Origin: Marixanthotalea marina
GTDB taxonomy: Bacteria > Bacteroidota > Bacteroidia > Flavobacteriales > Flavobacteriaceae
Length of the DNA stretch: 64,000 nt
NCBI GenBank assembly: GCA_018883545.1
Contig: JAHLEH010000001.1
Coordinates: 496,001-560,000, forward strand
Direction: 5' to 3'
Translations under genes and position numbers: made by a program
Shown: one piece after another, positions 659 through 39,379 of the stretch
How positions within the stretch are numbered: the first letter of the stretch is position 1
How the letters are laid out: each line of letters opens with the position of its first letter
The notes under the pieces: model-generated
Seen by the model: only the letters and a program-made list of their open reading frames with translations
Databases searched by the model: none
Told to the model about the DNA's origin: nothing

Positions 659-684
659 GTGCTTCGACTGCGCTCAGCATAACA
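659..684 (-). repeat. Dispersed repeat, copy 1 (core CTGAGCGCAGTCGAAG)
   Basis: The minus strand carries the core at 662-677, preceded by TGTTATG and followed by CAC. It lies in the rpsI-rpsB gap. Six other copies with the same core, some with one or two changes, occur in this window, all between genes. Confidence 0.8.
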
Positions 685-12067: not shown

Positions 12068-12087
12068 ATCCTGAGCGTAGCCGAAGG
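12068..12087 (+). repeat. Dispersed repeat, copy 2 (diverged)
   Basis: ATCCTGAGCGTAGCCGAAGG, with two changes from the core CTGAGCGCAGTCGAAG. It abuts the second copy of the tRNA-Gln 3' end, where the missing 5' part of that tRNA would be. Confidence 0.7.
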
Positions 12088-36825: not shown

Positions 36826-36830
36826 TAATA

Positions 36831-36858
36831 GTCGCCCTGAGCGCAATCGAAGGGTCTT
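36831..36858 (+). repeat. Dispersed repeat, copy 3
   Basis: GTCGCCCTGAGCGCAATCGAAG followed by GGTCTT, starting just after the OmpA-family stop. One change (A for G) from the core. Confidence 0.8.
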
Positions 36859-36929: not shown

Positions 36930-36978
36930 GTCATTCCATAGTTTATGCTGAGCGCAGTCGAAGTATAGGCAGGAATCT
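36930..36978 (+). repeat. Dispersed repeat, copy 4, joined to a second repeat type
   Basis: TGTCATTCC, then the core at 36948-36963, then TATAGGCAGGAATCT. The last part matches the second repeat type at 7708-7756, so this is a composite unit. Confidence 0.7.
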
Positions 36979-36998
36979 GTTAAAAATTTGAAACGAAA

Positions 36999-37030
36999 TG
37001 TCACCCTGAGCGCAGTCGAAGGGTCTCTCC
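36999..37030 (+). repeat. Dispersed repeat, copy 5
   Basis: TGTCACC, core at 37006-37021, then GGTCTCTCC. It ends 2 bp before the ruvB ATG and forms most of the apparent N-terminal extension of that frame (translated as [10 protein letters not shown]). Confidence 0.85.
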
Positions 37031-37032
37031 AT

Positions 37033-38055
37033 ATGAACGAAAACTTAGATCCAACAAACGATAATTTTTCTCCGGAAGAACTTGATGTAGAGAAAAAGCT
37101 AAGACCCTTATCTTTTGATGATTTTACGGGCCAGGATCAAGTGTTGGAAAATCTCCAAATCTTCGTAAAAGCGGCTAACCTGCGTAATGAGGCGTTAGAC
37201 CACACCTTGTTTCATGGCCCTCCGGGTTTGGGTAAAACCACATTGGCTCATATTTTATCCAATGAATTGAATGTTGGTATTAAAGTCACTTCGGGTCCCG
37301 TATTGGATAAACCTGGCGATTTGGCAGGATTGCTTACCAATCTGGAAGAACGCGATGTCTTATTTATAGATGAGATTCATCGACTAAGTCCCATTGTAGA
37401 GGAATATTTGTACTCCGCGATGGAGGATTATAAAATTGATATTATGATCGAGTCTGGCCCTAATGCCAGAACCGTTCAAATAAATTTGAACCCATTTACT
37501 CTAGTAGGAGCAACCACACGTTCTGGTTTGTTAACCTCACCAATGCGTGCCCGTTTTGGTATTCAAAGTCGGTTGGAATATTACAATAAAGAATTGCTTA
37601 CTACCATTATAGAGCGTAGTGCGTCCATTTTAAACGTGCCCATTTCTATGGAAGCAGCTGTTGAAATTGCTGGAAGAAGTCGAGGCACGCCACGAATCGC
37701 TAATGCACTGTTAAGGCGGGTACGCGATTTTGCCCAAATAAAAGGTAATGGAAAGATAGACATCAAAATAGCGAAATACGCTTTGGAAGCCCTAAATGTT
37801 GATGCTCATGGCTTGGATGAAATGGATAATAAAATACTTTCAACCATTATCGAAAAATTTAAAGGGGGCCCTGTTGGCATTACAACTATTGCCACGGCAG
37901 TGAGTGAAAGTCCAGAAACCATTGAAGAAGTTTACGAGCCGTTTTTAATTCAACAAGGCTTTATTATGCGTACGCCTAGAGGTAGGGAAGTAACCGAGTT
38001 AGCATATAAGCATCTCGGAAAAATAAAAGGGAATATTCAAGGGGGATTGTTTTAA
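37033..38055 (+). CDS. ruvB: Holliday junction ATP-dependent DNA helicase RuvB
   Basis: 340 aa from ATG 37033, starting [20 protein letters not shown]. RuvB is an AAA+ hexamer that drives branch migration with RuvA. Seen: Walker [10 protein letters not shown], Walker [10 protein letters not shown], sensor 1 VGATTRSG, arginine finger region SPMRARFG, and the C-terminal winged helix ([20 protein letters not shown]). The frame runs 15 codons further upstream, but those codons are made of dispersed repeat copy 5, so the upstream Met is not the start. ruvA lies separately at 50.0 kb. Confidence 0.97.
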
Positions 38056-38067
38056 TTTCGGTTCTTA

Positions 38068-38092
38068 TGTCAGGCTGAGCGCAGTCGAAGCC
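38068..38092 (+). repeat. Dispersed repeat, copy 6 (left flank of GIY-YIG gene)
   Basis: TGTCAGG, core CTGAGCGCAGTCGAAG at 38074-38089, then CC. Direct orientation, 15 bp before the GIY-YIG start. Confidence 0.88.
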
Positions 38093-38107
38093 TATATATC
38101 ACATACT

Positions 38108-38419
38108 ATGCACTTTTACTACGTTTATATATTGAAATGTTCAGATAGTTCCTACTATACTGGAATTACAAATGACATTCAAAAAAGATTCGTTGAACAT
38201 CAGTCTGGATTAAAAAAAGATTCATATACATTTAATAGAAGGCCTTTATCTTTAGAGTTTTATCAAGAATTTAATGATGTTTTGCAAGCTATTTATTTTG
38301 AAAAGAAAATAAAAGGCTGGTCTAGATCTAAAAAGAAAGCTTTGATAGATGGTGATTTTGATATGCTTCAAATGCTTTCAGAATGTAGAAATGCAACTCA
38401 TTATAAATATAAAAGTTAA
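38108..38419 (+). CDS. Small GIY-YIG nuclease domain protein
   Basis: 103 aa, only a GIY-YIG domain. FYYVYILKCSDSSYYTGITN carries the paired motifs (YVY at 5-7, YTG at 17-19), Arg27 and His31 (QKRFVEHQSG) follow, and Glu65 in YFEKKIKGWSRSKKKALI is the metal-binding Glu. All catalytic residues are present. Single-domain proteins of this group are numerous in Bacteroidota and mostly uncharacterised. The gene sits between two inverted copies of the dispersed repeat (38068-38092 and 38424-38448). No DNA-binding domain is attached. A structure-specific nickase or repeat-associated nuclease is possible; function unknown. Confidence 0.88.
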   Translation: MHFYYVYILKCSDSSYYTGITNDIQKRFVEHQSGLKKDSYTFNRRPLSLEFYQEFNDVLQAIYFEKKIKGWSRSKKKALIDGDFDMLQMLSECRNATHYKYKS

Positions 38420-38423
38420 GTTT

Positions 38424-38448
38424 GCACTTCGACTGCGCTCAGTGTGAC
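38424..38448 (-). repeat. Dispersed repeat, copy 7 (right flank of GIY-YIG gene, inverted)
   Basis: On the minus strand TGTCACA, core CTGAGCGCAGTCGAAG (38442-38427), then TGC. Inverted relative to copy 6, starting 5 bp after the nuclease stop codon. It runs to within 10 bp of the queG ATG. Confidence 0.88.
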
Positions 38449-38458
38449 ACTACAATCG

Positions 38459-39379
38459 ATGGATAATAAACAAAAAAATACCAATCTAATAAAAACCGAA
38501 GCCAAACGCCTCGGTTTTTTATCATGTGGTATTAGCAAAGCTGGTTTTTTGGAGGAGGAAGCCCCACGATTGGAAAAATGGTTAAAAAACAACATGCACG
38601 GCCAAATGCAGTACATGGAAAACCATTTTGATAAAAGGCTAGATCCAACCAAACTGGTGGAAGACTCCAAAAGTGTAATTTCCTTATTGCTCAATTATTA
38701 TCCCAACCAAGAGCAAACGGTTGATAGCTATAAGCTTTCCAAATATGCTTATGGCACCGATTATCATTTTGTGATAAAAGATAAATTAAAAGAACTTTTA
38801 AATTTTATTCAAGAAGGAATTGGCAAGGTTCATGGACGCGCTTTTGTAGATTCTGCACCTGTGCTGGACAAAGCTTGGGCTGCTAAAAGTGGGTTAGGTT
38901 GGATTGGGAAACATAGCAATTTATTAACTCAGCAAGTGGGTTCTTTTTATTTTATTGCTGAATTAATTGTCGACTTAGAACTGGAATATGACACCCCAAC
39001 TACCAATCATTGTGGCAGCTGCACCGCATGCATCGATGCCTGCCCAACAGAGGCAATTATGGAACCTTATGTGGTAGACGGCAGTAAATGCATTTCATAT
39101 GTAACCATTGAATTGAAAGATAATATCCCGACCGAGTTTAAAGGTAAAATGGATGACTGGATGTTTGGCTGTGATGTGTGTCAAGACGTGTGTCCTTGGA
39201 ACCGCTTTTCAAAATCACACAACGAACCGTTGTTTAATCCGCACCCAGAATTACTGTCCATGACCAAAAAAGATTGGGAGGAAATCACAGGGGAGGTTTT
39301 TCAAAAATTATTCAAAAATTCAGCAGTAAAGCGTACCAAGTTTTCCGGTTTAAAACGGAACATTGATTTTTTAAAATAA
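38459..39379 (+). CDS. queG: Epoxyqueuosine reductase QueG
   Basis: 306 aa from ATG 38459. Cobalamin- and Fe-S-dependent enzyme of the last step of queuosine tRNA modification. Seen: [19 protein letters not shown] and [20 protein letters not shown] (DUF1730), [20 protein letters not shown] (conserved substrate/B12 loop with catalytic Asp), then two 4Fe-4S motifs, [16 protein letters not shown] and [11 protein letters not shown]. It lacks the HEAT-repeat tail of E. coli QueG, as usual here. The frame's earlier Met adds MTLQS from the flank of repeat copy 7 and is not used. Confidence 0.96.

What the first reader, a model, noticed from the sequence alone, without database searches (positions are those of the whole stretch)
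38068..38448. GIY-YIG nuclease gene bracketed by inverted copies of a dispersed intergenic repeat
The 103-aa GIY-YIG gene lies between repeat copies TGTCA-N2-CTGAGCGCAGTCGAAG on one side and its inverse on the other, so the ~380-bp unit has terminal inverted repeats of about 24 bp that begin and end with TGTCA. Catalytic residues are intact. In REP/RAYT systems a single-copy enzyme works on short non-autonomous palindromes scattered between genes; here a different nuclease family is in the same relation to a scattered repeat. This could be a repeat-mobilising or repeat-maintaining system of Bacteroidota. Three further repeat copies lie within 1.3 kb upstream. Alternative: the gene is a mere neighbour of a repeat-rich gap.
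Basis: partly seen in the sequence, partly recalled or inferred. Interest (0 to 1): 0.75.

Follow-up and report, generated by a model that had tools for sequence, protein, structure and literature searches.

The report
Nuclease gene wrapped in hairpin repeats
In a flavobacterial genome a small nuclease gene sits between two outward-facing copies of a short DNA repeat that is scattered between its genes, the same arrangement recurs in most close relatives of this nuclease, and the enzyme is therefore likely the one that recognises, and may help to spread, that repeat.

Summary
The repeat is a tagged hairpin: TGTC, one base, a 4-base arm, GAGCGCAGTCGA, the complementary arm. Arms differ between copies but pair: all four pairs are Watson-Crick in 281 of 316 distinct copies, with 39 different arms. 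In 80 named relatives of the nuclease, 63 have copies on both sides, tags outward, 15 on one side, 2 on neither; of 383 other ORFs in the same loci 1 has both. Nuclease subclades match repeat subtypes, 3 changes among 115 labelled rows, also inside single genomes. Copy number is higher in nuclease carriers in 35 of 46 mixed genera, lower in 6. Gene-less inverted pairs exist, one where a sister species has the gene. So nuclease and repeat are partners, as RAYT and REP are. Not shown: cleavage or mobility. The gene mostly keeps its place (ruvB-queG), and 139 of 312 genomes scored as lacking it hold copies. Closest known: Ssn ssDNA nucleases (recalled, paper not held) and CGTC/TGTC-tagged REPs, reported to lack a dedicated transposase (PMC3733652).

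The parts
38108..38419 (+). small GIY-YIG nuclease, 103 aa, with C-terminal signature SECRNATHYKYKS of the repeat-associated clade
38068..38093 (+). tagged hairpin repeat TGTC-A-GGCT-GAGCGCAGTCGA-AGCC-T, upstream end of the unit, tag outward
38424..38449 (-). tagged hairpin repeat TGTC-A-CACT-GAGCGCAGTCGA-AGTG-C, downstream end of the unit, tag outward
36999..37024 (+). intact single copy TGTC-A-CCCT-GAGCGCAGTCGA-AGGG-T just before ruvB
36941..36966 (+). copy of the core with another 5' side (GTTTATG instead of the TGTC tag)
36830..36855 (+). degenerate copy (AGTC tag, one core change)
659..684 (-). single copy with tag TGTT, far from the unit
37033..38055 (+). ruvB (name recalled from the sequence), left neighbour (context); next to queG without the unit in ten other genomes
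38462..39379 (+). queG (epoxyqueuosine reductase type; name recalled), right neighbour (context)

Best explanation
This is a nuclease-repeat partnership: a small GIY-YIG nuclease gene bracketed by two outward-tagged inverted copies of a dispersed hairpin repeat, an arrangement shared by most members of its clade, and the enzyme is predicted to recognise that repeat as a single-stranded DNA hairpin and to cut beside the TGTC tag. Shown here: the anatomy, covarying arms, clade-specific flanking, matching of nuclease subclade to repeat subtype, linked copy number, gene-less inverted pairs, and places without the unit. Inferred: when the region is single-stranded (replication, repair or DNA uptake) the arm-GAG-loop-CGA-arm' hairpin forms, probably with tandem G.A pairs because the bases around them are kept as YGAR/YGAR, and the nuclease nicks it. 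Further inferred, with less confidence: nicking of two inverted copies lets the short pair, and rarely the long form with the gene, be copied or recombined to new intergenic places, so that the nuclease is to these repeats what RAYT is to REPINs; a genome that loses the gene would keep decaying copies.
For: Flanking: 63 of 80 named loci both sides, 15 one, 2 none, against 1 of 383 other ORFs and 16 of 14165 random 309-bp segments with both. Among 178 GIY-YIG loci, 94 of 118 with the C-terminal signature have both flanks, 22 one, 2 none; 50 of 60 without it have none. Covariation: 281 of 316 distinct copies with four Watson-Crick arm pairs, G.T in at most 2.5% per pair. Co-divergence: a 59-row clade is almost wholly CT-type and a 51-row clade almost wholly TC-type, 3 changes among 115 labelled rows; G121, G176 and G142 carry one nuclease of each clade, each with its own repeat type. 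Copy number: median 11 in 83 carriers against 0 in 312 others; higher in carriers in 35 of 46 mixed genera, lower in 6, tied in 5; 33, 7 and 6 after taking off two copies per nuclease. Extra copies within 1.5 kb of the gene: 32 against 0.52 expected, in 14 of 30 loci, 16 of the 32 in two loci. Places with and without the gene: G351 against G182; G246 with the gene where G369 has only an inverted pair and G017 a more worn one. Same arrangement in one Sphingomonas plasmid, the pair being dispersed over that strain's replicons.
Against: No cleavage or movement was seen. The gene mostly keeps one place (ruvB-queG) across genera. 139 of 312 genomes scored as nuclease-negative hold at least one copy and 44 hold ten or more; 8 of 83 carriers hold none of the exact pattern. 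In six genera the non-carriers have more; after taking off four copies per nuclease the genera stand 26, 10 and 10. Thermodynamic DNA folding of four copies is no better than shuffles. No short target-site duplication was recognised at the two sites aligned, though a longer stretch is doubled in G246, and neither pair can tell gain from loss. Four of seven proteobacterial GIY-YIG loci looked at have no flanking inverted repeat.
Confidence: 0.75

Rival explanations
1. The nuclease uses the repeats as recognition marks in the cell's own DNA, for example to limit or shape DNA taken up by transformation, as recalled for Neisseria Ssn and its NTS repeats; it does not spread them.
For: Matched nuclease and repeat subtypes, inheritance at a fixed place and the recalled biology of Ssn fit a resident regulator as well as a mobiliser.
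Against: Does not by itself explain why the gene is bracketed by inverted copies, why gene-less inverted pairs of the same build exist, or the local excess of copies.
Confidence: 0.4
2. The unit is a selfish homing-like element: the nuclease cuts repeat copies elsewhere and the unit is copied in by recombination between repeats, so repeats are landing sites.
For: In G246 the gene lies where its genus mates have only a repeat pair, and the surrounding stretch is doubled. Several carriers have two or three units.
Against: The ruvB-queG unit keeps its place over genera; G182 has no repeat at the place where G351 has the unit.
Confidence: 0.2
3. A REP-associated tyrosine transposase (RAYT) moves these repeats and the GIY-YIG gene is a passenger.
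For: The window's genome has one Y1_Tnp gene.
Against: That gene has no copy of the core, up to 2 mismatches, within 1.5 kb. Repeat subtype follows nuclease subclade. Y1_Tnp genes of other genomes were not looked at.
Confidence: 0.05
4. The gene is a mere neighbour of a repeat-rich gap.
For: Other GIY-YIG genes of this genome lack the flanking copies, so being a GIY-YIG gene alone is not enough.
Against: 63 of 80 against 1 of 383; subtype matching.
Confidence: 0.01

Closest known systems
Ssn, site-specific single-stranded DNA nucleases of the GIY-YIG superfamily, with NTS repeats in Neisseria (Chenal et al., Nat Commun 2025; recalled, nothing of the paper seen; not held or not found)
   Same: Small GIY-YIG protein paired with a short repeat dispersed in the genome; specificity differs between homologues (as recalled).
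   Different: Here the partnership is read from anatomy in Flavobacteriaceae: gene bracketed by outward-tagged hairpins, covarying arms, subtype matching, gene-less inverted pairs. No activity tested. Whether the Ssn paper includes these members could not be checked.
CGTC-tagged REPs (Di Nocera et al. 2013, PMC3733652; abstract, section 16 and passages read)
   Same: Unpaired CGTC or TGTC motif at one end of a short intergenic palindrome; dimers of opposite orientation; present in Bacteroidetes; Neisseria dRS3 belongs to it.
   Different: Stem here is 4 variable pairs around a fixed 12-base core, not 8-9 pairs with a 4-5 base loop. The paper reports no associated transposase; here a nuclease gene is associated. 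Its Figure 2 with the consensus sequences is not held, so sequence identity with its families was not checked.
REP/RAYT REPtrons and REPINs (PMC3733652 section 16; PMC3116915 seen only in the listing)
   Same: Enzyme gene flanked by inverted repeats; short gene-less inverted pairs elsewhere; enzyme and repeat types match.
   Different: Enzyme is GIY-YIG, not an HUH tyrosine transposase; tag TGTC, not GTAG.
UPF0213 proteins BH0048 (1zg2) and EF2693 (1ywl)
   Same: Same sequence family (E 3.7e-12 and 3e-7) and fold (Foldseek ranks 1 and 2).
   Different: Named hypothetical in the PDB; repeat association not tested for them.

Membership tests
GIY-YIG superfamily, small single-domain (UPF0213) type | GIY-YIG catalytic domain as nearly the whole protein | tested here: met
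   Pfam PF01541 E 5.9e-18 over residues 4-76 of 103; Y7, Y17, G19, R27, E65, N95 invariant in 22 sequences (catalytic roles recalled)
Ssn | cuts single-stranded DNA at a specific sequence, not double-stranded DNA | not testable with these tools
   no assay possible
Ssn | cognate sequence present in many genomic copies | tested here: met
   11 copies in this genome, median 11 in 83 carriers; that the repeat is the cognate sequence is inferred
Ssn | sequence homology to the characterised Neisseria protein | not tested
   paper not held; no Neisseria protein fetched
CGTC-tagged REP | unpaired CGTC/TGTC motif at one end | tested here: met
   10 of 13 copies found in this genome by the core alone have TGTCA at the same distance; no fixed base lies further out in 316 tagged copies
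CGTC-tagged REP | stem of 8-9 bp with A-T in the first pairs, loop 4-5 | tested here: not met
   4 variable pairs, outermost pair mostly G-C or C-G, 12-base core
REP/RAYT REPtron | HUH tyrosine transposase gene flanked by REPs | tested here: not met
   flanked gene is GIY-YIG; the one Y1_Tnp gene of this genome lacks the repeat nearby
insertion sequence with terminal inverted repeats | matching TIRs and frequent change of place | tested here: not met
   arms of the two ends differ; the ruvB-queG unit keeps its place over genera
insertion sequence with terminal inverted repeats | target-site duplication | tested here: inconclusive
   none recognised for G351/G182; a longer doubled stretch in G246

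The most novel reading that the evidence does not exclude
Small GIY-YIG nucleases are the missing mobilising enzymes of the CGTC/TGTC-tagged repeats: a second, independently evolved REPtron system, in Bacteroidota and Alphaproteobacteria, in which a nuclease without transposase chemistry spreads and maintains paired hairpins, each nuclease subclade with its own arm code.
Probability: 0.45. Interest if true: 0.85.

Novelty: new variant of a known kind. Interest (0 to 1): 0.68.

Why it matters
CGTC-tagged REPs were left without an enzyme in 2013 (PMC3733652). These data name a candidate, and give matched nuclease and repeat pairs, including two types within one genome, which make the specificity question directly testable with oligonucleotides. 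They would also explain a common anonymous repeat of Flavobacteriaceae genomes (214 of 395 genomes hold it).

Tried and rejected
Rejected: chance neighbour; RAYT as the mover in this genome. Not supported: known RNA family (five weak matches, none at its gathering score); defence system (no PADLOC family); spread on plasmids or viruses (10 plasmid records, all under 60% identity; 1 viral locus, 48%). Led nowhere: energy folding of single copies; NCBIfam; literature on the repeat sequence itself (0 papers for six spellings) and on Bacteroidetes repeats; the Ssn paper in the library (and 81, a review without the word).

Of seven proteobacterial plasmid GIY-YIG loci examined (L147, L148, L336-L340), one has this repeat architecture (L147), two have another inverted repeat on both sides (L148, L340), four have neither; so the wider claim rests on few cases. 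L339 and L340 also look broken in frame.

Limits of the counts. The C-terminal signature was chosen after seeing the alignment and misses some truncated or variant members (L038, L052, L135, L180, L206, L224, L225). Eight rows (L014, L015, L018-L022, L139) were left out of the tree; of its 190 rows 75 carry no CT/TC label, 11 of these because the two ends disagree. The 3 changes have no shuffle of their own; the finer labels of the same call need 8 (CT) and 10 (TC) changes against shuffled means of 45.6 and 48.6. The carrier label was read from the match list by a rule (match to residue 99 or later, no stop), a list that ends near E = 9e-30, so weaker members count as negatives; another label set (199 genomes) gave 37 intact carriers with median 13 against 158 with median 0, four pseudogene carriers set aside. 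Counts and labels were typed from outputs into scripts. In one search, 10 of the 32 extra copies lie at L050, beside a second nuclease copy, and 6 at L047. The 80 loci are the best 80 of 430 and include near-copies (L149, L151, L152, L164). The dimer loci were picked from close pairs seen in the capped listing. Of the 20 stretches only two (L280, L281) were used to look for places without the unit; both gave one.

Full report
What is there. The window holds a 103-aa GIY-YIG ORF at 38108-38419 between ruvB and queG. It is bracketed by 38068-38093 (+) and 38424-38449 (-), two copies of a 26-base repeat whose TGTC tags face outward. Three more copies of unequal quality lie upstream of ruvB, and one lies at 659-684. 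The genome holds 13 exact 16-mer cores and 11 tagged copies, with none of the reversed control pattern. The ten other GIY-YIG genes of the genome have no 16-mer with up to 3 mismatches nearby; one, L017, has a one-mismatch tagged copy on one side under a looser scan.

What the repeat is. Over 316 distinct copies, collected with tag and core from the loci then held, the four bases before the core GAGCGCAGTCGA pair with the four after it: 98.1, 95.9, 97.8 and 92.7% Watson-Crick from the core outward against 32-50% expected from column make-up. All four pair in 281 of 316, with 39 different arms. G.T pairs are at most 2.5% per position, which suggests (inference) that the DNA rather than an RNA hairpin is what is kept. 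The two pairs next to the core are nearly always pyrimidine on the 5' side and purine on the 3' side; with the fixed GAG and CGA this is the YGAR/YGAR setting of tandem G.A pairs (motif recalled). Energy folding of four single copies is no better than shuffles, so the case for structure rests on covariation.

Flanking is a property of the nuclease clade. In 80 named loci found by protein similarity (the best 80 of 430), 55 have exact cores on both sides within 200 bp, 20 on one, 5 on none. With one mismatch allowed and 250 bp, 63, 15 and 2; of 383 other ORFs in the same loci, 1 has both, 41 one, 341 none; of 14165 random segments 16 have both. Over 178 loci, members with the C-terminal signature [SA]EC[RK]NxxH or near it are 94 both, 22 one, 2 none of 118; the rest are 50 none, 5 one, 5 both of 60, seven of those ten being truncated or variant clade members by their sequence. 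Paralogues ending like LPNLAKKKF have no tag-outward copy; one (L100) has an untagged core 192 bp away.

Nuclease type matches repeat type. On a tree of 190 rows, a 59-row clade (SH-aLRT 95) carries almost only arms ending in CT, a 51-row clade (98) arms ending in TC; 3 changes suffice for 115 labelled rows. G121, G176 and G142 have one nuclease of each clade, each with its own repeat type; G091 has both repeat types too, but its CT-type nuclease (L047) stands outside the CT clade. A further clade (L260-L273) lies among hairpins with a similar core but another outer sequence, such as GGTGGCTGAGCG[TG]AGTCGAAGCCA. Many forks of the tree are weak because there are only 103 columns.

Presence and number. 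In 395 genomes of the family the tagged pattern has median 11 copies in 83 nuclease carriers and 0 in 312 others; at least five copies in 64 of 83 against 69 of 312. Of 46 genera with both kinds, carriers have more in 35, fewer in 6, equal in 5, sign test p = 5e-6; after taking two copies per nuclease off, 33, 7 and 6; after taking four off, 26, 10 and 10. The link is clear but loose: 139 of 312 scored non-carriers hold copies, 44 of them ten or more. Near the gene, beyond the two flanks, 32 further copies lie within 1.5 kb in 30 loci where 0.52 would be expected; they fall in 14 loci, half of them in two.

Gene-less pairs and places without the unit. In the capped listing, neighbouring copies that start within 150 bp of each other are 15 times tag-outward, 2 times tag-inward and 7 times in the same direction, 6 of these in one genome (my count from the listing). 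Twenty stretches were fetched. The 15 tag-outward pairs are 58-79 bp long; 12 of them join a CC-type arm with a GG- or GT-type arm, the other three an AC, TC or CA arm with a GG arm. Of the TC-type nuclease units, 14 have CCTC before and GGTC after the gene and 15 have GGTC on both sides. Among 29 other genomes whose queG locus was fetched (of 58 with a match), ten have ruvB next to queG with at most 247 bp between and no nuclease. A closer pair, G351 with and G182 without, aligns on both sides of an extra stretch of about 730 bp that holds the unit and further repeats. At a third place G246 has the gene where its genus mate G369 carries only an inverted repeat pair and G017 a more worn one, and the surrounding stretch is doubled in G246 (read by eye, the rest of that alignment being unreliable). 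These places show that the unit is present or absent but not which way it went. Against a hopping element, the ruvB-nuclease-queG arrangement of the window is matched on both sides by ten other loci of several genera, some of them near-copies of each other.

Other phyla. A Sphingomonas parapaucimobilis plasmid GIY-YIG gene has CGTTC-AGGCT-GAGCGAAGTCGA-AGCC before it and an inverted relative overlapping its end. A search with this stretch gave 138 places in 19 records; nine records, all S. parapaucimobilis, match it by the part that holds the repeat pair (128 places by the table, the query's own among them), while the other ten match the neighbouring methyltransferase gene. Two Methylobacterium genes have another inverted repeat; four other proteobacterial loci have none.

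Protein. AlphaFold gives a confident model (mean pLDDT 90), with lower confidence over the C-terminal signature. The nearest solved structures are two UPF0213 proteins, then Slx1.

Place in knowledge. Di Nocera et al. 2013 (PMC3733652; abstract, section 16 and passages read) define CGTC or TGTC-tagged REPs, list Bacteroidetes among their hosts, equate the Neisseria members with dRS3, and state that they lack a dedicated transposase. From recall, the Ssn paper of 2025 describes GIY-YIG nucleases that cut single-stranded DNA at a repeat of Neisseria; it is not held, so overlap with this finding cannot be excluded, and novelty is scored accordingly. The membership tests for a tyrosine-transposase REPtron and for an insertion sequence fail; that it works like a REPtron remains open and testable.

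Noticed in passing
L149 and L152: Contigs titled Rhodobacteraceae and Saprospiraceae carry a nuclease unit with the same flanking repeats as Flavobacteriaceae loci L151 and L164; likely mis-binned metagenome contigs.
   Followed up: no
L260-L273: A second GIY-YIG clade, several members ending like ECQNxTH, lies among hairpins such as GGTGGCTGAGCG[TG]AG[TC]CGAAGCCA, in L267 as a 31-bp inverted repeat around the gene.
   Followed up: partly
window 36941-36966 and 12071-12086; L002: Copies of a similar core with GTTTAT in place of the TGTC tag: possibly another tag family of the same hairpin.
   Followed up: no
L147 (Sphingomonas parapaucimobilis plasmid): GIY-YIG gene with inverted CGTTC-tagged hairpins; the 3' copy overlaps the gene end, so the protein's C-terminus is encoded by repeat.
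   Followed up: partly
L148 and L340 (Methylobacterium): GIY-YIG genes between inverted copies of another repeat with CACCTCAGGATGAGG.
   Followed up: partly
window 36988-37033: The repeat copy at 36999-37024 runs in frame into the ruvB ORF and would lengthen it by 15 codons if the TTG start were used.
   Followed up: no
L050 and L090 (G181): Two nuclease copies about 0.8 kb apart (one with a stop) inside a cluster of 12 repeat copies in 3.3 kb.
   Followed up: no
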